A DNA stretch of 64,000 nt, taken from positions 20,051,597 through 20,115,596 of the forward strand of contig OZ024888.1 of the NCBI GenBank assembly GCA_964017195.1, written 5' to 3'. Source of the DNA: Siderastrea radians (taxonomy: Eukaryota; Cnidaria; Anthozoa; Scleractinia; Rhizangiidae). The notes under the pieces are model-generated. The model saw only the letters and a list, made by a program, of their open reading frames with translations. It was not told the DNA's origin and ran no database searches. Shown in pieces: positions 14,781 to 63,404 of this stretch. Numbering within the stretch: the stretch's first letter is position 1; each line of letters starts with the position of its first letter. The translations under genes and the position numbers were made by a program.

Positions 14781-14852
14781 GTCCTGATGGTGTAGTGGTT
14801 AACACATCGGCACTAGAAAGTCGAGGACGCGGGTTCAAATCCCGTTCAGGAC
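14781..14852 (+). ncRNA. tRNA-like SINE head, copy 1
   Basis: 72 nt fold as a tRNA. The acceptor stem GTCCTGA/TCAGGAC is perfect, the D stem is GTGT/ACAC, and the T loop TTCAAAT sits on a CGGG/CCCG stem. Pol III A box (TGGTGTAGTGG) and B box (GGTTCAAATCC) are present. The anticodon arm TCGGC/GTCGA has a loop of 8 nt with a G-U pair, so it is not a normal functional tRNA; the loop contains CTAG. No CCA is encoded. Confidence 0.55.
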
Positions 14853-15036
14853 AATTTTTAGGGTTTTCACTTTATGTTTGTTTATTCTTTCTTCGACTGG
14901 TTTAAGTTCATTTGTGTTGTTTATATTCGTCGAAAAGGCCTACAAGCCTTCCAGTCAGCTCCTGTTAAAACACAAAAATTTGTCGGGAGGCCCGTGAGCC
15001 ATAAAGCCTTAAGTTCGGCTACGTTGTTGCGTGGTC

Positions 15037-15108
15037 GTCCTGATGGTGTAGTGGTTAACACATCGGCAATAGAAAGTCGAGGACGCGGGTTCAAATCCCG
15101 TTCAGGAC
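15037..15108 (+). ncRNA. tRNA-like SINE head, copy 2
   Basis: It is identical to copy 1 except for one base in the anticodon loop (ACTAG to AATAG). It has the same acceptor, D and T arms, the same pol III boxes and the same 8-nt anticodon loop. Confidence 0.55.
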
Positions 15109-15170
15109 AATTTTTAGGGTTTCACTTTGTGTTTGTTTATTCTTTCTTTGACTGGTTTAAGTTCATTTGT

Positions 15171-22385: not shown

Positions 22386-22451
22386 TAATTGTGTGTTTTA
22401 ACACCTCACCTTGCATATATTAACTCATCTATATTTTATTTTCTCACTTGT

Positions 22452-22922
22452 ACTTCAAAAAACTGTCAAATATGTAATTTTTTATGTCTAGGTGACACCT
22501 TTTGTAGCAATGAGAATGGCAAAGAATTTAAAATTAATTATAACTTAGATTGCAACTGTAGTAACGTAATCTACCTGATCAATTGTACTAAGTGCAAAGT
22601 GCAATATGTAGGATCTACTACGACTAGGTTTAGAACCCGATTTAATAATCATAAAAGCAGGGTCAATGCTCATGTTAATTTAAGTTTAAATCAAAAAGGG
22701 AAAGATGACCTCATATACAGACATTTCACTAGTGACGGGCACAGAGGTTTAGAAGACATGCAAATACAGCTGATAGACCATGTCAAAGGAGAAAAAGAAT
22801 TACGAGAAAGAGAAAATCACTGGATTTACAAACTGGCGACCTTGGCGCCCCATGGCCTCAACGACAATGACGGATTTTACGCACAAAACAAGAAGTCATG
22901 TGCGGGTGTACGCGCGCGATAA
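22452..22922 (+). pseudogene. PLE GIY-YIG endonuclease C-terminus (copy B)
   Basis: The frame starts inside the element at a Cys motif (CQICNFLCLG) and continues through GKEFKINY into the GIY-YIG core (VIYLINCTKCKVQYVGST, R..R..NHK). It ends at 22922 after LATLAPHGLNDNDGFYAQNK. The reverse transcriptase part is missing, so this is a 5'-truncated retrocopy. The domain is intact at residue level. Its closest relative in the window is copy D (33429-34064). Confidence 0.7.
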
Positions 22923-23010: not shown

Positions 23011-23051
23011 CACCCTGAAGAAGAGTACTTAATGTACTCGAAATATAGGTG
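23011..23051 (+). ncRNA. Hammerhead-like motif (PLE B)
   Basis: Stem I CACC/GGTG encloses CTGAAGA, an extra A, stem II GAGTAC-TTAAT-GTACTC, GAAA and TATA. The boxes match hammerhead CUGANGA and GAAA, and UA can serve as the U-H cleavage site. Stem III is reduced to the dinucleotide UA. Confidence 0.5.
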
Positions 23052-23139
23052 TTAAACAAAAAAAGTTAGAGTTTGTCTTCATCTGTGTTAAATTTATATG
23101 ATCGTTATGAGAGACTACAAGAATGGATGCTTGTGAGAA

Positions 23140-23141
<2 letters not shown>

Positions 23142-23193
<52 letters not shown>
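23142..23193. repeat. (TA)n tract between two PLE 3' ends
   Basis: Pure TA run. On its left is the 3' end of plus-strand PLE B and on its right the 3' end of minus-strand PLE A. Confidence 0.9.
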
Positions 23194-23196
<3 letters not shown>

Positions 23197-23271
23197 CATC
23201 AAAAACATCATTTGTCTAGATCTTTCTCCAGAAATAAGCATATAAAACCACAAAAATACTGGAAATAAGAC

Positions 23272-23320
23272 TTGCCGATATTTCGTCTTTATTAATTAGT
23301 AAAAGACTTCGTCAGGGCAA
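23272..23320 (-). ncRNA. Hammerhead-like motif (PLE A)
   Basis: Minus strand: stem I TTGCC/GGCAA, CTGACGA, an extra A, stem II GTCTTT/AAAGAC with an 11-nt loop, GAAA, then TATC before the stem I return. Stem I and stem II sequences differ from those of copies B, C and D but still pair. Confidence 0.5.
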
Positions 23321-23563
23321 CTGATCAAGCGGCTAGAGCCGTTACAATATATACGCTTATAGGTAACGTAAGACGCTCAACAGTAGAAATACGCGAGCAC
23401 ATGTGGGCGGTTACAACCGTTACAATATTCGCACCAAAATAAAATAAACGTCAAACGCTAAATAGCTAAGGCACGCGCGTGCCCTTCTGTACAACTAAAT
23501 ATACAGCAAATAAAAATACAATAATTTAAAGCATAGGGATTAAAACTCAATACAATTAAAATT

Positions 23564-25434
23564 TTAAAACAGATCCCTCCTAGGATTTCTGCTACAGAAA
23601 AAGTCATCGCTGTTAAGCCCCGATGGGTAAATTGTCCTCAGACGATAAGCCCACTGGGCCTCCCTTTCCCTAAGCGATCTTTCATTCGAACCTTTGTCAA
23701 CTAACTGAATTCTTACATCCTTAAGACCTCTATGATCTGGCTGATTAAAGTGTTTGTATATGATGTCGTCCTTAACCCTATTCTTAGCAGTAAGTTTAAC
23801 GTGACTATTGAGCCTAGATTTATGGTTGTTGAACCTAATTCTAAATTTATTAATACTGGATCCTACATATTGCATTGCACACCTGGCGCATGATATAAGG
23901 TAAATCACATGATCAGAATTACACCCCATGTCAAAATTAATTATGTAACTCTTGCCAGTAACTCCACTAACAAATCTGGTACCTTCAACAAGATAATCAC
24001 ACACCCTGCATCTTTTATCTGTACACTTAACACAACCCTTATCCTTAACCGGTGTCTTAAGTTCTGAGTGAACCAAAATGTCCTTAAGACATTTCGGCCT
24101 TCTAAAGGCCACCATGCGTACCCCTCCTATAGCTTCCCTACAACGGCTGGAGGACTGCAAGATAGGATGTAATCTATGCAATATTTCCCCAATGTTTGGA
24201 AGTACCGGGTGGAAGGTGACAACAAAAGGAATACGTTCGTTACCAGCAGATTGTTTATTGCTAAGGGTATCCACCCTAGGAATCCTTCGTGCTCTCTCAA
24301 TTTCCTTCTCGACAAAATCTCTGTTATAGCCCCCACAAACAAGATAATTGCACAGTTCCCCAGCTCGTTTCTCAAAGAAAGCATCTGAAGAACATATACG
24401 GCGTAATCTTAGTGCCTGTCCAAAGGGTATACCTTTCTTGCAAGAGTTAGGATGACAGGAAGTGTGAAACAGATACTGGTGTTTATCTGTAGGTTTGCTA
24501 TATAAGTCCGTGGAGATTACTCCGTTGTCCAACATAACACTGACATCCAAAAAACTAACCCGTGTATACGACCACTCAAAGGTAAACTTAATAGTATCAT
24601 GAAAAGAATTCATATACTCCATAAACGTCTTAAGTCTTTCCTCGCCCTCCGTCCAAATCATAAAGATGTCGTCAATAAATCTACGCCACGTGCGTGGCTT
24701 AACTGGTGACTGTTCAAGCAAGTCCGCCTCTAGTTTCCCCATAAGAATGTTAGCATACGATGGCGCCATTTTAGTCCCTATTGCAGTACCCAAGATTTGT
24801 AAATAGTGCTTACCATTAAAGGTAAGGTTGTTGTGAGTAAGAACTATTCTCGCTAAATCAACTAAATCCTCTGTAGGAATGGATGTAGTGTTATTACCAC
24901 TTAAAGCCGCCCTCATGGCCCTTAAACCTTCCTCGTCTGGAATATGGGGATACAAGCCTACCACATCCGCTGTAACCAATATCGCCCCCTCAGGCAGCGT
25001 ACCTAATTTGTTAAGTTCTTGTAGAAAATGTTTAGTATCCTTAATGTAAGATGGTATTCTTGGAACCAAGGGCTTAATATGGTAATCAACGAACTCAGAG
25101 ATCCTTTCTGTACACGTACCACAGCCGGAAATAACCGGCCTACCCGGACAACCCCTCTTGTGTATTTTAGGTAACAAATAGAACCTACCCGCCCTAGGAT
25201 TACTGTTGACCAAGAGGTAATCTAAAGTCTTATCGTCAATATGGCCATCCAAAAACAGCTTACGAATCCTCTCATTAACTAGTTTAGATATATGCTGAGT
25301 AAGGTCTTCGGGCGTCTCCCTATAAACACTGCGATCACCTAACTGTCTAAAAGCCTCATTCATATAATTTTCCTTATCCATTACCACCACCCCCGACCCC
25401 TTATCATCCTCCTTAATAACGATGTCATCATAAG
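23564..25434 (-). pseudogene. PLE reverse transcriptase and GIY-YIG endonuclease (main block)
   Basis: This open block of about 620 codons carries the PLE signature. Counting from the GTG at 25390, residues 70-90 read FYLLPKIHK.....RPVISG; VTADVVGLYPHIP near 140 holds one catalytic Asp; FIDD at 238-241 is the second catalytic motif. A CxxC...CxxC cluster at about 453-464 precedes the GIY-YIG nuclease (VIYLISCARCAMQYVGSS, about 495-512). The enzyme reverse-transcribes its RNA at a nick made by the nuclease. The block has no internal stop. It is listed as broken because the N-terminal block lies beyond two insertions. Confidence 0.85.
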
Positions 25435-25575
25435 TGTGATATATCGTCAGCTAATTCGACTTAGCAAAACACGAGGTCAGACATATCATGGCGGTTCTCA
25501 ACACAACTTTATTCTTCTTAAGCATTCTGGGTAAATACACAGTTACCAGAGGATTATGGTACTAAATATATTACA
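25435..25575 (-). repeat. Gypsy 3' LTR
   Basis: 141 bp, in element sense TGTAAT...ATCACA. It is identical to the LTR at 29739-29879. Confidence 0.95.
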
Positions 25576-25588
25576 CTGCTTCCCCTCA
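25576..25588 (-). promoter_or_regulatory. Polypurine tract
   Basis: Minus strand GAGGGGAAGCAG directly precedes the 3' LTR. It is the expected primer site for plus-strand DNA synthesis. Confidence 0.65.
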
Positions 25589-25640
25589 GGGATGAGATGT
25601 TAAATACAACAGGTAACAGAAACATTAGCAAAAATATCAA

Positions 25641-28600
25641 CTATAGAGTAAGCCGGTCAACTGGTTTCCTGATTCTCTGTGATCGCCTCAAAACTACTGG
25701 TGATGATGTGTTTACACTCTCTTGATTAAGGCTGGGCTCAACCTTTTCATCTGTAACAACAACTGGCGGCTGCGGTACACTGTTTGAAACCGGACTAACA
25801 TCTTCAATTAGGCTAGATTGCTCACATGACTCGGGGACACATATGTCCACCTTACTAGTCTCATTTGGCACTTTATCATATGCTCTAATCAAATGGTCAG
25901 CGTGTACATACCTAGTTTTATGTCCAGTCCTAACCATGTAAGTTCTAGGTCCGCAAACCTTTACTACTTTTCCTAGGATCCACCGTTCAGTGTTGCTGTT
26001 GGCTTGCGTGTTTCTAACCCGAACTATATCATTCTCTGAAAACAACCTTTCTTCATGACACTTCAAATCCTTGTATTTCTTCTGTTTATTCTGTTTACTT
26101 TCTACTACTTGGGCTAGATCGGGTTTCACTAGACTTAAACGCGTACGCAGGCGACGTCTCATTAACAACTCAGCTGGCGCGGCACCTGTGGTGCTGTGTG
26201 GGGTGGTGCGATATCTTAACAGGAAATCTGCTAGTCTATGTTTCATAGACCTACTCTTGTTGCCTTCTAAGACCTGTTTGACTAGTGCCTCCTTCACTAC
26301 TCTGACTGACCTTTCGGCCGCGCCATTTGATTGTGGGTGGTAAGGGGGAACTAAGGTGTGTTTGATGCCATTTTTGTTCATAAACTCAGCAAATTCGGTT
26401 GAAACGAACTGTGGTCCGTTATCAGATACCACTTCCTCGGGCAAACCGTGTTGGGCAAATATGAGACGCAGCTCATTTATGGTGTTCCCTGCGGTAATTG
26501 TGGTCATGTGCTGTACCTCGATCCATTTTGAATGGTTATTAACCACTACAAGAAAGTAGTCACTGCCCTTTTGACAAAAATCAATGTGAATGCGCTGGAA
26601 AGGTCGCGTGGCCCATTTCCACGGTATCAGGGGTGCACTAGGCGGAGAGCTCCTTACATTCTGACAAACTGTGCATAATTTTATTTCTCTCTCAATTTCT
26701 TCATCCATCTTTGGCCACCACACACAGGTACGAGCTATTGCTTTCATTGCACAAGTGCCAGGATGTTCCCAATGTAATTCCTTTAACATCTTCTCTCTAA
26801 ACACTTGGGGAATGATTACCCTGGAGCCCCACAGAATGCAATTCTGTTCACAAGAGAGCTCATGTCTACGAGTGTAATAGGGTTTTAGATCCTCCTGATT
26901 ACATTTTTCTGGCCACCCTGTCATGACCAGTTCAAGTGCTTTACTAAGTAGTGGGTCCAGTAATGTGGCCTTCCCAATATCCTTTGCGGTTACAGGGAAG
27001 TCCTTATCAATAGCACTAACACTATAGACTTCACTTTCCCTCCCTATCTTGGAATCTTCATGGGGTAACCTGGAGAGTGCATCACAGTTGCTGTGCTTTT
27101 CAGATCTCCTGTACTCTATTTGATAGTCGTAAGCTGAAAGGACCAGAGCCCAGCGCTGCATACGGGCAGCGGCCAGCGTGGGAATTGCGGCCTTTGGGCC
27201 CAAAAGAGCTACCAATGGCTGGTGATCAGTTACTAGTGTGAACTTTCGTCCATATAGGAACTGATGAAATTTCTTAACCCCATATATAATAGACAAAGCC
27301 TCGCGTTCTATCTGGGCATAATTTCTCTCACTTGAACTTAGTGTGCGTGAAGCATAAGCTACAGGCCTTTCTTGACCATCGTCCATCACATGACTAAGTA
27401 CTGCTCCCAAACCATAACTGGATGCATCACAAGCTAACCTGAGTTCACGATTCAGGTCATAGTGAACCAACAGTGAATCATTGGTAAGGCCCTCCTTGCA
27501 GGCTTCAAAAGCCTCCTGACAGTCCTTCGTCCATTCCCACTGGACATTTTTCTGCAGAAGCCTATGTAAAGGTGCTAATGTTGTAGCTAGCCCTGGCAAG
27601 AAGGAATGATAATACTGAACCATTCCCAAGAAAGATCTTAGTTCACTAACATTACGAGGGGATGCAGCTCTCTTCACTGCATCAATCTTCTCCTCCACTG
27701 GTTGCAAACCTTCAGCACTTATTCTCAGGCCTAGATAAACCACTTCAGGCTTCAAAAATTCACATTTGGGCAACTTCAAATGCAAATTATATTTGTGTAG
27801 CCTGTCTAATACTTCCCCGAGTATCCTAAGATTCTCTTGCCAGTAAATTCCTCCTATTAAAATGTCATCTTGTTTGCATACACATTTTTCAATTCCTTGA
27901 AGAATTTGATCCATTTTTCCCTGAAATATTTTTGGGGATGACTTAACACCATAGGGTAACTTTAAGTAGGAATACAGACCTTTGTGAGTAGAGATGGTCA
28001 AGTATTGTTGACTTTCTTTGTCAACATTCAGCTGAGCATAGGCATGTGACAGATCAAGCTTACTAAATACCTTAGAACCAACTAGTGCAGTATATAAATC
28101 TTGGGTAGTGGGCAGGACGTATTGCTCATCTTCAACTGACTGATTGATAGTCACCTTATAATCACCGCAAATTCTAACAGTGTTATCACTTTTCGGCACG
28201 ACCACAATTGGGCTAGCCCAACACGATTTGTCAGTTTTCTTAATCACCCCATGCTTTTCGAGTTTGTCTAACTCTTTTTTGACTTGCTCTTTCAGTGCAT
28301 ATGGAACTCTACGTGCTTTCACAAATATGGGCTTCGCATCTCCTTTCATGGTGATGTGTGCCTCAAGCCCTTTCATGCCTTCATAACTCTCTGTAAACAA
28401 TTCACTATGTTTAGACAACAGATCATTAAGTTGACTCTTGGAACTGACTGAGTCTCTACTAGAGACACTAAATATCTCTCCCCACTCTAACTTAATTCGA
28501 CGCAGCCAGTTTTTGCCAAGTAATGTGGGCTTAGCATAATAATTAGCTACAACAATTGGTAAATAATACTGTTTGCCCCTGTACACAATGTCACACTGCA

Positions 28601-29651
28601 TTTCACCTGACACATCAAGCACCTCACCAGTATATGTTCTGAGTGTTATTTTAGAAGGAGTTAGGGGCCTTCCTGCAAATCTTTCCAGATATTCACTCAT
28701 TATAGAGTAATCTGCAGCAGTATCCAGCTCCATCTGGCATAGCTTTCCATTGATTTCCATTTCCACAGTGTAACGATTGTGGGTAGGCTTGTCTGTGTCA
28801 AGCGAATACAAGGAATAAATTCCTAATTCATCATCATTTTCATTAGCATCATGACCTGATTCAGATACCTGAACATTATGGACTTTACCTTTCCTTTCCT
28901 CATCTTTGCTACGGCAAACAGATGCTAGATGACCGACCTTAGAACATTTGTAACATTTCGCTGACTTAAATTTACAAAACTGACCTGAATGATTACCCCC
29001 ACACCTATGACATACTGATTGGTCAGTGTTCTTACTGCTCTGCTCTGTCAACTTGTTCACTTGATTGCTCTCGCTGCTTGTGGGGTGAAACTCTTGAGTG
29101 TTCTTTTCCGCCATCTCCATGGTCTTGGCAATACTGCAAGCCTTTGCAAACGTCAGGTCGTCAGTGTTCAACAGTTTGTTTTGTATCTTAGAATTGTTCA
29201 ATCCACACACGAACCGGTCCCGTAAAGCACGATCCAAGAATTCGCCATAATTGCAATGGACAGCCAATCTCCTCAGGGCAAGCACATAATCGCTGATTGA
29301 TTCTCCAGACTTTTGATTTCGGGTACCGAAATGGAAACTCTGTGCAATTTCAAGCGGCTTCGGATTGTAGTGTTTCTCCAAAACACGTACAATGTCTGTG
29401 AATGACGTGTCTTTCGGTTTCGCAGGCGCCAACAAATTACTGAGGGTCGAGTAAACTTCTGGTCCCACTTCGGCACGTTTCCTATCTGCTACCAGTCGGT
29501 TGGTTTGAGTGCTTCCCTCTCCCGTTGTCTCAACGATGTTATTGGCTGTGAAGAACATTTCTATCCTCTCCACATAAGCATTGAATGTTTCCCGCTCGGC
29601 GTTGAACTCGCCTACACGTCCGAATAGTCCACTCGCACTAGTGCTGGTCAT
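25641..29651 (-). CDS. Gypsy Gag-Pol polyprotein
   Basis: An uninterrupted frame of about 1,336 codons starts at ATG 29651. In order: capsid-like region (1-190); two zinc knuckles, CX2CX3HX4C and CX2CX4HX4C (about 214-246); protease with DTAA (310-313); reverse transcriptase (about 440-650) with SKLDLSHAYAQL and the active-site segment KQDDILIG, where Lys stands at the usual Tyr position; RNase H (about 737-863) with ACDASSYGLGAV and TDHQPL; integrase with HHCC zinc finger (HX3H...CX2C, about 960-996) and catalytic D1024, D1077 and E1113, the last two 35 residues apart. Gag and Pol share one frame, so no frameshift is needed. There is no envelope frame. All domains look intact, so it may be active. 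Confidence 0.93.
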   Translation of the reverse strand: MTSTSASGLFGRVGEFNAERETFNAYVERIEMFFTANNIVETTGEGSTQTNRLVADRKRAEVGPEVYSTLSNLLAPAKPKDTSFTDIVRVLEKHYNPKPLEIAQSFHFGTRNQKSGESISDYVLALRRLAVHCNYGEFLDRALRDRFVCGLNNSKIQNKLLNTDDLTFAKACSIAKTMEMAEKNTQEFHPTSSESNQVNKLTEQSSKNTDQSVCHRCGGNHSGQFCKFKSAKCYKCSKVGHLASVCRSKDEERKGKVHNVQVSESGHDANENDDELGIYSLYSLDTDKPTHNRYTVEMEINGKLCQMELDTAADYSIMSEYLERFAGRPLTPSKITLRTYTGEVLDVSGEMQCDIVYRGKQYYLPIVVANYYAKPTLLGKNWLRRIKLEWGEIFSVSSRDSVSSKSQLNDLLSKHSELFTESYEGMKGLEAHITMKGDAKPIFVKARRVPYALKEQVKKELDKLEKHGVIKKTDKSCWASPIVVVPKSDNTVRICGDYKVTINQSVEDEQYVLPTTQDLYTALVGSKVFSKLDLSHAYAQLNVDKESQQYLTISTHKGLYSYLKLPYGVKSSPKIFQGKMDQILQGIEKCVCKQDDILIGGIYWQENLRILGEVLDRLHKYNLHLKLPKCEFLKPEVVYLGLRISAEGLQPVEEKIDAVKRAASPRNVSELRSFLGMVQYYHSFLPGLATTLAPLHRLLQKNVQWEWTKDCQEAFEACKEGLTNDSLLVHYDLNRELRLACDASSYGLGAVLSHVMDDGQERPVAYASRTLSSSERNYAQIEREALSIIYGVKKFHQFLYGRKFTLVTDHQPLVALLGPKAAIPTLAAARMQRWALVLSAYDYQIEYRRSEKHSNCDALSRLPHEDSKIGRESEVYSVSAIDKDFPVTAKDIGKATLLDPLLSKALELVMTGWPEKCNQEDLKPYYTRRHELSCEQNCILWGSRVIIPQVFREKMLKELHWEHPGTCAMKAIARTCVWWPKMDEEIEREIKLCTVCQNVRSSPPSAPLIPWKWATRPFQRIHIDFCQKGSDYFLVVVNNHSKWIEVQHMTTITAGNTINELRLIFAQHGLPEEVVSDNGPQFVSTEFAEFMNKNGIKHTLVPPYHPQSNGAAERSVRVVKEALVKQVLEGNKSRSMKHRLADFLLRYRTTPHSTTGAAPAELLMRRRLRTRLSLVKPDLAQVVESKQNKQKKYKDLKCHEERLFSENDIVRVRNTQANSNTERWILGKVVKVCGPRTYMVRTGHKTRYVHADHLIRAYDKVPNETSKVDICVPESCEQSSLIEDVSPVSNSVPQPPVVVTDEKVEPSLNQESVNTSSPVVLRRSQRIRKPVDRLTL

Positions 29652-29720
29652 CCTGTACGGCACAACACACACAGAGTTGCTCCAAAAAACCTTGCACTGT
29701 CGATTTCCGTGGAGAAACGT

Positions 29721-29738
29721 CCACTTCTCGTCGCCAAA
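29721..29738 (-). promoter_or_regulatory. Probable tRNA primer binding site
   Basis: Immediately inside the 5' LTR the minus strand reads TTTGGCGACGAGAAGTGG. The TGG start two bases after the LTR is typical. I cannot name the tRNA with confidence. Confidence 0.5.
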
Positions 29739-29879
29739 TGTGATATATCGTCAGCTAATTCGACTTAGCAAAACACGAGGTCAGACATATCATGGCGGTT
29801 CTCAACACAACTTTATTCTTCTTAAGCATTCTGGGTAAATACACAGTTACCAGAGGATTATGGTACTAAATATATTACA
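29739..29879 (-). repeat. Gypsy 5' LTR
   Basis: 141 bp, identical to 25435-25575. It serves as promoter end of the minus-strand element. Confidence 0.95.
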
Positions 29880-29890
29880 ATAAGACTTAA

Positions 29891-31253
29891 GGTGGCTCGA
29901 TCGGGTTTTTGGGTGACGATACCTCTTAACTTTGAGCAACTAGCGTACCACAGTGAACAACCCAATAGAAAATCGATCGTTACTGCTAATCTAGAGAAAG
30001 ATGAAAGTTTTAAATGAGGTAAGTTTAATCGAAATCGGAGTTACCATAGCAACGTAATGACGTCATCCCCCCTTTTACATGAGAGCCAATTACTTGTCAC
30101 CAAGAGATAATTCTGGAAAGCGTTCGACTGGATCTTCGACCTGACATATTTGTATTCACGAAGATGTTCCGAAAAACGTGCTAATGTACCAGGTCAGCAT
30201 TACAATAACAATGGACAGGCTGACAGCAGTGAGTGCAAACCTCAAGGTTAGCAGTAGGCGCAAACTTCGGTTAGCAGTGAGCGCAAACGGAAAGCTGCTG
30301 TGCTCAGTGTTCCAGATAAATTTTTATGGCAAGGAGTCAACGAAAAATTTAAACAGGTCAGTAGACGTGGGTCTCCCCCAATCTTATCCCAGTCTCAGCA
30401 CGTTTTTGGAACATCTTCGGAAAGCAATCAAGCGTTATATGAATTCATGATGTAGTGAAATTTACAATTGCACGCCGATTCAAAACAATGGAGATGCATA
30501 ATGAGAGCAACAAGCCACTGGCGTGAAAATCAGTCCAATATTTTCCTGAGTTTTGGCTCAAAATTGACAGCTTTATAACGTTTCAATGAGTTTGAGACTC
30601 GGGGATTGTATTGAATATTGATTGTTCTCCTTAAAAGCAAAGTTTTAAAAAAATTCATCTAACGCTTTTTAATTCATAATCATTTTAATAAGTGTAGGGT
30701 CGATTTTTGATAAAAAAAAAGCCGCGTAGCACACTAAACCAGTTCATATTCAAGCCAACGTTTCTAAAAATCAAATGGAACGATTTCCCCGAAATTTTCA
30801 CATAAAGCAATTAGATGACGTATCATTCATTTAAAACCAAAATGTTGTTTCATCAAGTCCCTGTGGACATACTTTTCAATAACAGTTCAAAATTATTTTG
30901 TTTTTGTTGTTTTTTAACACCTTAAAACTTCACCCAAAAATTTCTCGAAAACTCTCTCATAGAAATTCTTCAAATTTTGTAGACGTGAAGACAAATATGT
31001 CAGGTCGAAGATCCAGTCGAGCGCTTCCCAGAATTGTCTCTTGGTGTCAATTAATTAGCTCTCATGTAAAATGGGGGATGACGTCATTACGTTGCTATGG
31101 TAACTCCGATTTCGATGAAACGTACCTCATGTAAAACCTTCATCTTTCTCTAGGTCACCAGTAACGATCGATTTTCTATTGGGTTGTTCACTGTGGTACA
31201 CTAGTAGCTTAAAATTGAGAGGTATCGTCACTCAAAAACTCGATCGAGCCACC
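29891..31253. mobile_element. 1.36-kb TTAA element with ~270-bp inverted ends
   Basis: Left end GGTGGCTCGATCGGG and right end CTCGATCGAGCCACC are flanked by TTAA at 29887-29890 and 31254-31257. The inverted arms extend about 270 bp (for example 'ggtgacgatacctctt' / 'gaggtatcgtcactc' and 'gtcgaagatccagtcgag' against its complement). There is no transposase. Removing it restores the PLE reading frame, so TTAA is the duplicated target. piggyBac- or Kolobok-like mobilisation is inferred. Confidence 0.8.
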
Positions 31254-31257
31254 TTAA

Positions 31258-31707
31258 GATCCTTTAACGCCTTGCGTTCTGATAAATTGCTATGAATTCT
31301 TCTCCCATTATTGACTGAGGATAAAATTTCCTCCTCTACAGCCTGAGCGTACGCCTCAATAGCAATCTCCCTACCCCTGTCCGGACACCATGTAGATCTA
31401 TTGCGAAAAGCCGGAAAGTCCGAAAAATCACCTCCTACATTATCTCCTTGAAAGAAATATTCCTTAAGTCTAATACGTCTAATGAAATCATTAATATCCT
31501 TACGCAAATTATATCTATCCAAATCAGAAGGAGTTGGGCAAAATTTCAAGCCCTTAGATAATAAGGCAACTTCCCCTTCAGTCAATTCTCGACTTGAGAG
31601 ATTAACTACCGTATTTAAACCTGTGGTAGTTTCCGCCACAGTTCTAGTCCTTACACTGCTGGACGTAATGATACCTGTTTGAGTAGGATACAGCTGTTTG
31701 AGTAGGA
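31258..31707 (-). pseudogene. PLE copy A, N-terminal block
   Basis: An open minus-strand frame leads into the main block at 25434 across the two insertions. It contains GLKFCPTPSDLDRYNLRKDI and a Lys/Arg-rich helix, the region that precedes the RT in PLE proteins. The frame stays open to the inverted junction near 31707, so the original start codon is lost. Confidence 0.75.
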
Positions 31708-32176
31708 ATTACAGTGTACAGATAAAAGATGCAGGGTGTGTGATTATCTTGTTGAAGGTACCAGATTTGTTAGTGGAGTTACTGGCTAGAGTTACATAAT
31801 TAATTTTGACATGGGGTGTAATTCTGATCATGTGATTTACCTTATATCATGCGCCAGGTGTGCAATGCAATATGTAGGATCCAGTATTAATAAATTTAGA
31901 ATTAGGTTCAACAACCATAAATCTAGGCTCAATAGTCACGTTAAACTTACTGCTAAGAATAGGGTTAAGGACGACATCATATACAAACACTTTAATCAGC
32001 CAGATCATAGAGGTCTTAAGGATGTAAGAATTCAGTTAGTTGACAAAGGTTCGAATGAAAGATCGCTTAGGGAAAGGGAGGCCCAGTGGGCTTATCGTCT
32101 GAGGACAATTTACCCATCGGGGCTTAACAGCGATGACTTTTTCTGTAGCAGAAATCCTAGGAGGGATCTGTTTTAA
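31708..32176 (+). pseudogene. PLE GIY-YIG C-terminus with nonsense mutation (copy A')
   Basis: It encodes the Cys cluster and the complete GIY-YIG domain of copy A. A single A-to-T change makes TAG at 31787-31789 where copy A has AAG (Lys). The rest is unchanged at protein level, which points to a very recent origin or to homogenisation between the two arms. Confidence 0.85.
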
Positions 32177-32431
32177 AATTTTAATTGTATTGAGTTTTAA
32201 TCCCTATGCTTTAAATTATTGTATTTTTATTTGCTGTATATTTAGTTGTACAGAAGGGCACGCGCTTGCGAGCGCGCATGCCTTAGCTATTTAGCGTTTG
32301 ACGTTTATTTTATTTTGGTGCGAATATTGTAACGGTTGTAACCGCCCACATGTGCTCGCGTATTTTTACTGTTGAGCGTCTTACGTTACCTATAAACGTA
32401 TATATTGTAACGGCTCTAGCCGCTTGATCAG

Positions 32432-32476
32432 TTGCCCTGACAAAGTCTTTTACTAATAAAGACGAAATATCGGCAA
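32432..32476 (+). ncRNA. Hammerhead-like motif with core mutation (PLE A')
   Basis: Same fold as in copy A (stem I TTGCC/GGCAA, stem II GTCTTT/AAAGAC, GAAA, TATC). The box reads CTGACAA instead of CTGACGA, which changes an invariant core G, and the stem II loop is shorter. Confidence 0.45.
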
Positions 32477-32499
32477 GTCTTATTTCCAGTATTTTTGTG

Positions 32500-32504
<5 letters not shown>

Positions 32505-32543
<39 letters not shown>
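32505..32543. repeat. (TA)n tract
   Basis: Pure TA run between the 3' end of PLE A' on the left and the 3' end of minus-strand PLE C on the right. Confidence 0.9.
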
Positions 32544-32544
<1 letters not shown>

Positions 32545-32632
32545 CTTTTCACAAGCATCCGTCGCCACCGTAAATCTTCATAAAAAAATATATGTTATCA
32601 CAAATGAAGACAAGCATTAAACTTTTTTCACA

Positions 32633-32673
32633 CACCTATATTTCGACGCCTTTTAGGCGTCTTCTTCAGGGTG
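32633..32673 (-). ncRNA. Hammerhead-like motif (PLE C)
   Basis: Minus strand: CACC, CTGAAGA, A, stem II GACGCC-TAAAA-GGCGTC, GAAA, TATA, GGTG. Its stem II differs at most positions from that of B and D while pairing is kept. Confidence 0.5.
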
Positions 32674-32815
32674 AATAGCCGTTGCCCTGCACGCGCCATA
32701 CTATAAAAACAAGTTACAAATGGAGCATCCACGCGCACGCGCTACAACAAATCGTTAACTACCCTGCACGCGCGCGCCCACTAACGTTACATAAATCTAC
32801 GTACGCCTTGAGCGC

Positions 32816-33075
32816 CTATTTTGTACAAAGAAAAAAATCATTGTCATTCAATCCATTCGGATCTAGTGTGTTTAGTTTATAGGCCCATTGACCCTCTTTC
32901 TCGCGCAACTGTTGTTCTCCATTCACCCGGTCTATCAATTGGATCTTAACGTCACTCAGTCCATTATGTCCTTCACCACAAAAATGTCTGTACAATAGAT
33001 CATCGGCCCTTTTCTCTGCCTGCGTCAACATTCCGTGTCGCCTAATCCTAGACTTATGGTTATTAAACCTCAGTC
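32816..33075 (-). pseudogene. PLE C-terminal fragment (copy C)
   Basis: About 85 codons of the GIY-YIG C-terminal half: R..R..NHK, DDLLYRHF..EGHNGL.D..IQLID, REKEGQWAYKLNTLDPNGLND. The catalytic N-terminal strand of the nuclease is absent. Confidence 0.6.
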
Positions 33076-33203
33076 TAAATTTCGTAGTTTACTACACAAT
33101 ATATATACATATAAACTTGTCACAAGCATCTCCTTCTCCCGTCCTCATAGAAAACAATATAAATTAATCACAAATGACGACGAAACACCGCAAATTCCTT
33201 TTA

Positions 33204-33244
33204 CACCTATATTTCGACCACATTCAGTGATCTTCTTCAGGGTG
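33204..33244 (-). ncRNA. Hammerhead-like motif (PLE D)
   Basis: Minus strand: CACC, CTGAAGA, A, stem II GATCAC-TGAAT-GTGGTC (one G-U), GAAA, TATA, GGTG. Confidence 0.5.
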
Positions 33245-33428
33245 ACTAATAAACCGTTAACGTGTTACACTTTTAAATTGTTGAATTGCGAAGGTAACGC
33301 GCGTGCCTGAATACAACTGCCACTGAACTAACTGCTGTTTTGAAACTGTAACGGAAAATTCTTACGTTATAGTCTGCGCGCGCTCATACAATTGACTACT
33401 ATTTTGAAACTAACAGAAAAATGTTACG

Positions 33429-34064
33429 TTATCGTGTGCGCGCGCTCATTCGCGTCTTTTTGTTTTGCCCATAGAAACCATCATTGTCATTAAGTCCATG
33501 TGGTATCAATGTTCTCAGTTTGTAGATCCACTGTCCCTCTTTATCGCGTAGCTCTCGCTCCCCTTTAACCCAGTCTATTAGTTGGATGCTCATGTGCTCT
33601 AAGCCAAAATGTCCCTGGCTATGAAAATGCCGGTAAAGTACATCATCCTTCTCCTTATTTCCCGAAGACAAATTTACGTGCGCATTTACCCTACTCTTAT
33701 GATTATTGAACCTCGTTCTAAACGCAGTGGTAGTTGAGCCAACATACTGAATGTCACATTTCTTACAAGTGATAAGATAGACTACATTTTCAGAATTACA
33801 ATTAAGGGTATAATTTATGGTAAACTCCTTTCCTGTTTTGTTACTTTGAAAAACTCTTCCTAAACAAAGAAAAGTACAAATCTGACAACGATTAGAATTA
33901 CATTTCCAAGTTTCTTTAACTTCTTCTTTGGGGCCACTTGTAAACCGGGCGCGGACCAAATAGTCTGAAAGACTTTTGGGTTTCCTAAAGGCTACCATTG
34001 GAACTTCTTTGATGGCATTCTTGCATCTATTTGATGAGTGCAGAACGGGCTGCAAATCCCTCAT
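33429..34064 (-). pseudogene. PLE GIY-YIG endonuclease C-terminus (copy D)
   Basis: About 210 codons: a linker (PMVAFRKPKSLSDYLVRA), Cys motifs (CNSNRCQICTFLC), and the full GIY-YIG core (VVYLITCKKCDIQYVGST, FRTRFNNHKS). It ends after LRTLIPHGLNDNDGFYGQNK. RT is missing through 5' truncation. No internal stop is present. Confidence 0.7.
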
Positions 34065-34193
34065 GAGCGTGCGCAGACTATAACGTAAGAATTTTCCGTT
34101 ACAGTTTCAAAACTGCAGTTAGTTCAGTGGCAGTTGTATTCATGCACGCGCGTTACCTTGGCAATTCAACAATTTAAAAGTGTAACACGTTAA

Positions 34194-34495
34194 AGCCGCG
34201 GCTACACGAGCGATTTTTTGCTTGCGATGGTGATGCGATTTTTTTGAAAATTGTCGCGTCACCAGCGCGAGGAGAAAATCGCCTGTGTAGCCACCCTCGC
34301 ACAGGTGATGCGACAGATGAAAAAATAGCAGAAAAAAATCGCGAGAAATTCAATGAGTTGAATTTTTGCGACTAAATCACGGACTTCGTCAGAGGGTGGC
34401 TACACAGGCGATTTTCGCCGCGCGCTGGCGACGCGACAATTTCAGAAAAATCGCATCACCATCGCAAGCAAAATATCGCTCGTGTAGCCGCGGCT
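34194..34495. mobile_element. 302-bp MITE with TAA target duplication
   Basis: Perfect ends AGCCGCGGCTACACGAGCGA and their inverse are flanked by TAA at 34191-34193 and 34496-34498. The subterminal parts are also inverted copies. The uninterrupted sequence in copy D (33249-33260, read inverted) shows the empty site. A 3-bp TAA duplication suggests PIF/Harbinger mobilisation. Confidence 0.8.
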
Positions 34496-34510
34496 TAACG
34501 GTTTATTAGT

Positions 34511-34551
34511 CACCCTGAAGAAGATCACTGAATGTGGTCGAAATATAGGTG
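34511..34551 (+). ncRNA. Hammerhead-like motif (PLE D')
   Basis: Identical to the copy D motif: CACC, CTGAAGA, A, GATCAC/GTGGTC, GAAA, TATA, GGTG. Confidence 0.5.
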
Positions 34552-34642
34552 TAAAAGGAATTTGCGGTGTTTCGTCGTCATTTGTGATTAATTTATATTG
34601 TTTTCTATGAGGACGGGAGAAGGAGATGCTTGTGACATCAGC

Positions 34643-34688
34643 ACTGCACTGATGAGGCCCATAAGGCCGAAACAGTACTGTCTGCAGT
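34643..34688 (+). ncRNA. Complete type I hammerhead ribozyme
   Basis: Stem I ACTGCA (34643-34648) pairs with TGCAGT (34683-34688). The core is CTGATGA (34649-34655), stem II GGCC-CATAA-GGCC (34656-34668), GAAA (34669-34672), stem III CAG-TA-CTG (34673-34680) and cleavage site after GUC (34680-34682). All invariant core bases are present. Hammerheads of this minimal type are established components of Penelope-like retroelements. It sits at the 3' end of a PLE segment, directly before a (TA)n tract. Confidence 0.88.
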
Positions 34689-35706: not shown

Positions 35707-35770
35707 GGATTTTAATACAAATCTGTTTCGTAGACCAACACGGAGTTGGTCCACTCATCAGTTAATCTCC
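35707..35770 (-). ncRNA. Type I hammerhead ribozyme in PLE F
   Basis: Minus strand: stem I 5' side GGAGATTAA, CTGATGA, stem II GTGGACCAAC-TCCGT-GTTGGTCTAC (ten pairs, one G-U), GAAA, stem III CAG-AT-TTG (C-G, A-U, G-U), cleavage dinucleotide UA, then TTAAAATCC. Stem I pairs TTAA/TTAA and GGA/TCC around a small internal loop, the kind that contacts loop II in active hammerheads. It is sense-oriented with respect to the PLE protein. Confidence 0.8.
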
Positions 35771-36021: not shown

Positions 36022-36495
36022 TTAGATATTTATAAAAAACTTCTCTGAAATGCATAAATTGCACCGCTTGGTGAGAGTGGTGTATGCTCTTGCTTTTGCA
36101 AGGATTTTCCACGTGATTGTAAAATCTTTCTTCTTTTCTTTTAACTGCCACAGGTATTTGCTGAGCTCAGTGTCATTCTTCTTGTTCTCATGCTTGAATG
36201 ACATCTGGTGGTTCCTCCATCTGGTCTCGAATTCTGTGGCAGTCAGGCCTATATATGTCTCGGTTTTTTCCTTGGTTGTGACCTTGGCTTGGTACACAAC
36301 TTCTTTTAGCAAGCATTCACCTTTTAATGGGCACTCGTCTGCTTTTCTGCAGTTGAACGTTTTTGTGGTTGTGTCTTGTTGAGGTTGTGCTGCTTTCTTT
36401 AAGATGTTTTTGTTGTGTCCGTCTATTATTTGTTTCACGTTTGGCATACAGCTGTAGCTTAATTTGATAGTGTTCCTACTGAATATTTTCCTCAA
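36022..36495 (-). pseudogene. PLE GIY-YIG C-terminus (copy F)
   Basis: About 157 codons: KIFSRNTIKLSYSCMPNVKQI, a Cys motif (CRKADECPLKGEC), the nuclease core (VVYQAKVTTKEKTETYIGLT, F..RW.NH), then TELSKYLWQLK and CNLCISEKFF. It keeps the core that is deleted in 16806-17480. The N-terminus and RT are missing. Confidence 0.7.
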
Positions 36496-36766
36496 TTTGT
36501 GGCCAGTTGGGAAACATCTGTCGATTAGGCTGATGAAAGCTTTCCTATATTGGTTTTGACGTTTTTGCTGAACGGTGGGTTAAACCATATTATATTTCTA
36601 CGCCTGCTCTTTTGGTTTGGTGGAACCATTACGCAAGAGCGGTTATACCTACAGCCTTAAATTCAAACCTTCACAGCAAACACCACCAGGATTTTGTTAT
36701 TTTAGCGTACACTTGATCTACTTAGAGGCTTCGGTCGGGGGCTTTATTACGGATTTTTCTGTTTAA

Positions 36767-63231: not shown

Positions 63232-63404
63232 GACGATGTGATCAATTTTAGTATTCACGTAGTCACTTGAGTTGTAGATCGCGACGTTTCGACTGCTTAC
63301 TGCTAGTCTTCATCGGGCGATGAGGTCGACTGGTTGCGCGTCACCATATGAATCACGATGGTCGGCTGTGATTGGTGTTGAGGAGGCCCACCCTGCCAAA
63401 ATTA
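63232..63404 (-). mobile_element. PLE-like 3' end fragment
   Basis: The minus strand carries a hammerhead-like motif (63278-63321) in the same layout as the PLE 3' ends at 23-34 kb, although the sequence is otherwise different. A 22-bp block 'gttgaggaggcc.accctgcc' at 63378-63400 recurs at about 63846-63867. Confidence 0.4.
63278..63321 (-). ncRNA. Hammerhead-like motif, second family
   Basis: Minus strand: stem I ATCGC/GCGAT, box CCGATGA (one change from CUGANGA), an extra A, stem II GACT/AGTC with a 10-nt loop, GAAA, then CGTC. Again a self-complementary dinucleotide (CG) and U-H (UC) replace stem III. Confidence 0.4.

What the first reader, a model, noticed from the sequence alone, without database searches (positions are those of the whole stretch)
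23011..34551. Covarying hammerhead-like fold with stem III reduced to a dinucleotide in PLE 3' regions
Six copies (23011-23051, 23272-23320, 32432-32476, 32633-32673, 33204-33244, 34511-34551) share stem I, CUGANGA, one extra A, stem II, GAAA, NN, U-H, stem I. Stem II is GAGTAC/GTACTC, GTCTTT/AAAGAC, GACGCC/GGCGTC or GATCAC/GTGGTC. Stem I is CACC/GGTG or TTGCC/GGCAA. Pairing is thus kept while sequence changes. The position where stem III should be holds only UA, which is self-complementary, so two RNAs could share a stem III as a dimer. The extra A after CUGANGA departs from the textbook core.
Basis: partly seen in the sequence, partly recalled or inferred. Interest (0 to 1): 0.85.

Follow-up and report, generated by a model that had tools for sequence, protein, structure and literature searches.

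The report
Minimal hammerhead ribozymes in Penelope-like elements
The six repeats are real copies of a small, presumably self-cutting RNA motif already known from Penelope-like jumping genes of animals, here with one extra core nucleotide that has a published precedent in a viroid, so this is an ordinary but well-supported set of new members.

Summary
All six copies are where stated; five have CUGANGA, the one at 32432 has CUGACAA. Each has one extra A, stem II of 6-7 bp, GAAA, UA, U-H and a stem I of 4-5 bp. A scan for this layout finds them plus a weaker seventh at 63278-63321 (-), with dinucleotide CG; 60 Markov sequences gave none. Pairing survives change: 50 of 50 cells pair, 7 of 10 pairs change on both sides, slid versions pair 32-42%. 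Copies start 89, 185 and 244 nt past the endonuclease ORFs of three Penelope-like (PLE) pieces; others lie in a truncated piece and in two inverted 3' fragments.

This matches the minimal type I hammerheads of PLEs, published in 2014, with dimer cleavage in the title of a later paper; neither text is held, so I know them through citing papers. The extra A corresponds to A10 of the CChMVd(+) hammerhead. Rfam 15 shows no hammerhead match at the six. Dimer action is compatible but untested; nearest-neighbour energies do not favour it. The own-genome search did not complete. New members of a known kind; low interest.

The parts
23011..23051 (+). minimal hammerhead, PLE piece A1: CACC CUGAAGA A GAGUAC..GUACUC GAAA UA UA GGUG; inferred cleavage 23047/23048
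23272..23320 (-). minimal hammerhead, PLE B 3' end: UUGCC CUGACGA A GUCUUU..AAAGAC GAAA UA UC GGCAA; inferred cleavage 23277/23276
32432..32476 (+). copy in the inverted 3' fragment of PLE B, core CUGACAA (G8 to A), probably inactive (inference)
32633..32673 (-). minimal hammerhead, truncated PLE piece A3, stem II GACGCCU/AGGCGUC; inferred cleavage 32637/32636
33204..33244 (-). minimal hammerhead, PLE piece A2, stem II GAUCAC/GUGGUC; inferred cleavage 33208/33207
34511..34551 (+). identical copy in the inverted 3' fragment of A2; inferred cleavage 34547/34548
63278..63321 (-). seventh, diverged and weaker copy: AUCGC CCGAUGA A GACU..AGUC GAAA CG UC GCGAU (U4 to C); no PLE ORF seen in the 2 kb translated around it; its lowest-energy fold is not the hammerhead
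   Evidence: (10.4 bits, E 2.7)
22389..22922 (+). PLE A1 GIY-YIG endonuclease piece
   Evidence: Pfam PF01541 6.2e-07
33429..34106 (-). PLE A2 GIY-YIG endonuclease piece; 48% identical to PLE B over 204 aligned positions
   Evidence: Pfam PF01541 1e-06
23564..25450 (-). PLE B reverse transcriptase plus GIY-YIG endonuclease
   Evidence: Pfam PF00078 1.6e-06 (28.5 bits, just under its 29.6 cut-off) and PF01541 4.5e-05; homologues with the same domain make-up
31232..31708 (-). N-terminal piece of a PLE ORF, assigned to PLE B by position
   Evidence: 65% identical to P0007 over 100 aa, 55% to P0005 over 127; no Pfam match
31713..32538 (+). inverted 3' fragment of PLE B, head to head with it
   Evidence: inverted repeats I1, I3, I6
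34063..34637 (+). inverted 3' fragment of A2, split by a short palindromic insert at about 34194-34494
   Evidence: inverted repeats I4, I5

Best explanation
These are minimal type I hammerhead ribozymes in the 3' untranslated (pLTR-like) region of several Penelope-like retroelement families of an unnamed, probably marine invertebrate genome. In sense PLE RNA, stems I and II form around the CUGANGA(A)/GAAA/U-H core. Stem III would be A15.1-U16.1 plus one more pair, which cannot close as a hairpin. The palindromic AUAU (ACGU at 63278) could pair with a second copy, giving a double hammerhead, or the core could be held by the element's protein. Cleavage 3' of H17 (A or C) would trim PLE read-through transcripts. 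Shown here: sequence, covariation, location, palindromic dinucleotide. Inferred from published relatives: cleavage, dimer or protein assistance, and the processing role.
For: Layout and chance control. Covariation of both stems. The five distinct copies of the six each fold alone into these two stems (the outermost stem I pair of the B copies stays open), z -2.9 to -6.5. A model built from the six gives them 66-76 bits and everything else in the window at most 12.4 (the six are its training set). PLE context by Pfam, homologues and inverted-repeat anatomy. A and B endonucleases are only 48% identical, yet the core is kept and the stems differ. Literature, as passages: minimal PLE hammerheads lacking helix III (PMC6155905; PMC7761336), thousands in a coral (PMC7229834), double-hammerhead dimers (PMC6466107), protein-assisted cleavage of a PLE hammerhead (PMC11167929, main-text section read).
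Against: No activity data. Rfam 15 shows no hammerhead match at any of the six at E up to 10. The extra A departs from the textbook core. Of seven copies one lost G8 and one has U4 to C; the latter's lowest-energy fold (-13.2) is not the hammerhead (-7.3). Nearest-neighbour energies disfavour the swapped dimer by 4.0-4.4 kcal/mol for the UA copies, and unrestricted co-folding prefers an extended duplex. Only one same-strand pair within 1 kb exists here. In PAc, hammerhead mutants did not change insertion in vitro and no RNA-seq ends were seen at the cleavage site.
Confidence: 0.9

Rival explanations
1. The fold is real and selected, but its main role is as a structured RNA element (binding of the PLE protein or placing of the reverse-transcription start); self-cleavage is secondary or residual.
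For: [quoted passage not shown] One copy here keeps both stems but lost G8.
Against: The unpaired core letters needed for catalysis are kept between A and B families whose stems differ. A mere binding hairpin would not need CUGANGA, GAAA and U-H.
Confidence: 0.25
2. The copies in this window are dead relics: the ribozyme worked in source elements, but these truncated, inverted or degraded copies do nothing. Not exclusive with the best explanation.
For: A1, A2 and A3 appear truncated (no reverse transcriptase ORF of 150 aa or more listed beside them), B is interrupted by an LTR retrotransposon, and 32432 and 63278 have core mutations.
Against: Five of seven copies keep an intact core, and the A2 arms are fully complementary over 143 nt, which may mean a recent insertion.
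Confidence: 0.35
3. A DNA-level hairpin (cruciform or integration signal), not an RNA.
For: Covariation alone does not tell RNA from DNA; four of the six copies are followed within 133 nt by a TA repeat and two lie in inverted fragments.
Against: The conserved letters lie in the internal loop and are those of the hammerhead core. One pair is kept as G-U in one sequence.
Confidence: 0.03
4. Chance resemblance.
For: None found.
Against: 0 in 60 Markov sequences for the layout. Of 155 hits to the consensus boxes in viral and prokaryotic collections (distinct within each of four sets), 0 had stem II of at least 6 bp with stem I of at least 4 bp, and 6 had at least 4 and 3.
Confidence: 0.005

Closest known systems
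Minimal type I hammerheads of Penelope-like elements (Cervera and De la Pena 2014; Lunse, Weinberg and Breaker, RNA Biol 14, 2017; neither text held, known through citing papers and their reference lists)
   Same: PLE location, no helix III beyond the conserved pair or a short one, stems I and II only, proposed action as dimers
   Different: I could not read whether their consensus holds the extra A after CUGANGA or which dinucleotides they list
PAc Poseidon hammerhead of Anolis (PMC11167929, main-text section read)
   [quoted passage not shown] the copies here were seen after the endonuclease ORF and in inverted 3' fragments. Letters were not compared
CChMVd(+) viroid hammerhead with A10 (passage in PMC3705267)
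   Same: one extra A between A9 and stem II, as here in 7 of 7 copies; there it lowers the trans-cleavage rate moderately
   Different: viroid, not a retroelement
Canonical type I hammerhead motif at 34643-34688 + of this window (Rfam HH9, 25 bits, below its cut-off of 52)
   Same: core CUGAUGA, GAAA, U-H
   Different: no extra A, 8-nt stem III region, 6-bp stem I; its lowest-energy fold is not the hammerhead either

Membership tests
hammerhead ribozyme | CUGANGA between stems I and II | tested here: met
   5 of 7 copies exact; 32432 has A8 and 63278 has C4
hammerhead ribozyme | GAAA after stem II and U-H before the stem I 3' strand | tested here: met
   7 of 7, but the scans require it; H is A in four and C in three
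hammerhead ribozyme | stems I and II conserved by covariation | tested here: met
   five distinct rows; with the caveat on the seventh copy
hammerhead ribozyme | no nucleotide between A9 and stem II | tested here: not met
   one extra A in 7 of 7; known exceptions exist (CChMVd A10; [quoted passage not shown]
hammerhead ribozyme | self-cleavage 3' of H17 | not testable with these tools
   needs an assay
minimal PLE hammerhead | lies in a Penelope-like element | tested here: met
   6 of 7 copies; no PLE ORF seen beside 63278
minimal PLE hammerhead | stem III lacks non-conserved nucleotides or is 1-2 bp | tested here: met
   dinucleotide UA in six, CG in one (length 2 was required, not)
minimal PLE hammerhead | tandem arrangement permitting a cis dimer | tested here: inconclusive
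   one same-strand pair within 1 kb (A2, A3, 571 nt apart); the B and A2 pairs are inverted
minimal PLE hammerhead | works as dimer | not testable with these tools
   energies only, disfavouring by 4.0-4.4 kcal/mol for the UA copies
Rfam hammerhead families | match at the curated cut-off | tested here: not met
   no hammerhead match at the six copies at E up to 10

The most novel reading that the evidence does not exclude
The extra A (A10) and the palindromic stem III dinucleotide are two co-adapted parts of a conditional ribozyme. Because A and B families share AUAU, RNAs of different PLE families in one genome could form mixed double hammerheads and cut each other, while ACGU families stay apart: a dimerisation code between PLE families, gated by the PLE protein.
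Probability: 0.07. Interest if true: 0.55.

Novelty: new member of a known kind. Interest (0 to 1): 0.2.

Why it matters
It adds three endonuclease-bearing PLE pieces and one truncated piece with a covarying minimal hammerhead, and it shows a concrete gap: Rfam 15 gives no hammerhead match here although a six-sequence model separates the copies from the rest of the window. [quoted passage not shown]

Tried and rejected
Relatives elsewhere: three pattern scans of viral contigs and one of prokaryotic genome contigs gave no copy that fits the full fold. The one recurring case, 24 viral hits printed, has a 4-bp stem II and near-identical letters; I judge it a coding coincidence and did not test that. 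A protein scan of viral contigs with the B ORF found none. These are collections of viruses and prokaryotes, so absence says little about animals; they serve as a chance control.

Unrestricted co-folding of two copies gives an extended duplex that opens stem II (-27.2, -25.0, -35.3, -25.6, -24.4 kcal/mol for A1, A2, A3, B, B inverted), not a double hammerhead. The nearest-neighbour model lacks hammerhead core contacts, so I give it little weight.

An ATG in loop II, recalling PAc, is present in A1 and A2 but not in A3 or B (read from the sequences printed), so I did not use it. A tblastn of the family C ORF against phages gave no match and tells nothing.

Literature on the extra A within PLE hammerheads: the listings, and the passages I opened, showed none; most listed papers were not opened and the two key papers are not held, so I make no claim that it is unpublished.
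Full report
What was checked. The window was read around the copies and scanned with a script for hammerhead layouts on both strands. All six reported copies are present at the reported positions. The same scan found two canonical-looking motifs without the extra A, at 34643-34688 + and 35712-35765 -. Forty first-order Markov sequences gave a mean of 0.225 hits and at most 2. A second scan fixed the extra A and the 2-nt stem III and allowed one mismatch in CUGANGA. It returned the six plus 63278-63321 -, with zero hits in 60 Markov sequences. That seventh copy was first pointed out by the covariance model, at only 10.4 bits and E 2.7. It has U4 to C, no PLE ORF was seen in the 2 kb translated around it, and its lowest-energy fold (-13.2 kcal/mol) is not the hammerhead (-7.3), so it is a weak member.

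Corrections to the observation. The copy at 32432 has CUGACAA. The six are four lineages: A1, A2 (two identical copies), A3 and B (two near-identical copies). The A2 copies lie in inverted arms fully complementary over 143 nt; the B copies lie in arms 97% identical over an 800-nt alignment.

Covariation. On the MAFFT alignment of the six the two-stem structure pairs in 50 of 50 cells of five distinct rows. Seven of ten pairs change on both sides. The covariation score is 0.890 against a shuffled mean of 0.314, and 0 of 500 shuffles reach it; but 133 of 500 reach the number of further pair types and 2 of 500 the number of two-sided pairs. Slid partners pair 32-42%. RNAalifold finds the same structure unaided. 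With the seventh copy 58 of 60 cells pair and 8 of 10 pairs change on both sides; that copy was picked by a scan that demands pairing. The five distinct copies folded alone give the same two stems, z -2.9 to -6.5; the two canonical-looking motifs do not have the hammerhead as their lowest-energy fold. Chance control on outside data: 155 hits to the consensus boxes in viral and prokaryotic collections, distinct within each of four sets, 0 with stem II of at least 6 bp and stem I of at least 4 bp, 6 with at least 4 and 3.

Surroundings. A1 (22389-22922 +), A2 (33429-34106 -) and B (23564-25450 -) carry GIY-YIG endonuclease matches, and B also has a reverse transcriptase match just under its curated cut-off. 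The search with B found 1340 proteins at E up to 0.001 among 7993 scored; the 120 listed mostly share the same domains. None of the listed names says Penelope; the PLE assignment rests on the combination of a reverse transcriptase and a GIY-YIG endonuclease, which PMC11167929 gives as the make-up of canonical PLEs. The listed organisms are Holothuria leucospilota (one protein) and Oculina patagonica (three). The hammerheads start 89, 185 and 244 nt from the ends of these ORFs. A and B endonucleases are 48% identical over 204 aligned positions, so the core has outlived much divergence while the stems changed. A3 is a truncated piece recognised by DNA similarity to A1 and A2. [quoted passage not shown] At the 5' end of B and of A2 lies an inverted 3' fragment carrying its own hammerhead. 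Inverted pLTRs, most often head to head, are described for Penelope elements (PMC3846280, passages). From the start of the core, a TA repeat of five or more units begins after 133 nt (A1), 126 (A3), 122 (B), 67 (B inverted) and 174 (A2 inverted); none was found in the stretch examined for A2.

How it most likely works. In hammerhead numbering (recalled) the copies read stem I, C3-U4-G5-A6-N7-G8-A9, extra A, stem II, G12-A13-A14-A15.1, NN, U16.1-H17, stem I. A15.1, the dinucleotide and U16.1 make AUAU, a palindrome that cannot close on itself and could pair with a second copy. A double hammerhead with swapped strands would have two cores sharing a 4-bp stem III. Forced swapped dimers score -20.4, -19.2, -27.0, -15.6 and -16.8 kcal/mol against -24.4, -23.2, -31.0, -20.0 and -21.2 for two forced monomers (A1, A2, A3, B, B inverted), and unrestricted co-folding prefers an extended duplex. 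Dimers are thus not favoured in that model, which knows no core contacts. The PAc study reports a PLE hammerhead that cleaves only with the PLE protein, with mutants that do not affect insertion in vitro and no RNA-seq ends at the cleavage site (PMC11167929, main-text section read). I infer cleavage assisted by dimer or protein; this is not shown here. Only A2 and A3 offer two same-strand copies within 1 kb (571 nt apart).

What is known. Passages seen: PLE hammerheads are usually minimal versions lacking helix III (PMC6155905); in some cases they map to PLE pseudo-LTRs, and they may self-cleave as dimers (PMC7761336); the coral Acropora millepora has more than 6000 type I motifs, of which up to 1508 are canonical and the others resemble the PLE and Terminon minimal variants (PMC7229834); double hammerheads through merged stems III are said to occur in PLEs (PMC6466107). 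The extra A corresponds to A10 of CChMVd(+), which lowers the trans-cleavage rate moderately (PMC3705267). [quoted passage not shown] The primary papers of 2014 and 2017 are not held, so I cannot say whether their consensus includes the extra A, and I do not claim that it is new.

Verdict. The reading 'covarying hammerhead with stem III reduced to a dinucleotide' is right. The implied novelty is not. The items of some use are the absence of Rfam matches, the weak seventh copy with a different but again self-complementary dinucleotide (one in four by chance), and the mixed-family dimer idea, which is untested.

Noticed in passing
34643-34688 +: Canonical type I hammerhead motif a few bases past the end of the inverted A2 arm (34637), beside a TA repeat; Rfam HH9 at 25 bits, below its cut-off of 52; its lowest-energy fold is not the hammerhead. 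Resembles the retrozyme class by recall.
   Followed up: partly
35712-35765 -: Hammerhead-like motif without extra A, with a 10-bp stem II, 257 nt past an ORF at 36022-36579 - that looks PLE-like to me but has no Pfam match. A related piece at about 16.7 kb keeps only the 5' half of the motif. The motif's lowest-energy fold keeps stem II but not stem I.
   Followed up: partly
34194-34494: Short palindromic insert with terminal inverted repeats flanked by TTAA, looking like a MITE (read); the MIR841 match there (50 bits, cut-off 200) is most likely an artefact of its hairpin.
   Followed up: no
25432-29879 -: LTR retrotransposon with gag, protease, RT, RNase H and integrase matches, bounded by 144-bp direct repeats (99%), nested in PLE B.
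   Followed up: partly
14781-14853 + and 15037-15109 +: Two near-identical tRNA genes starting 256 bp apart, next to a long TA repeat at about 15.2 kb.
   Followed up: no
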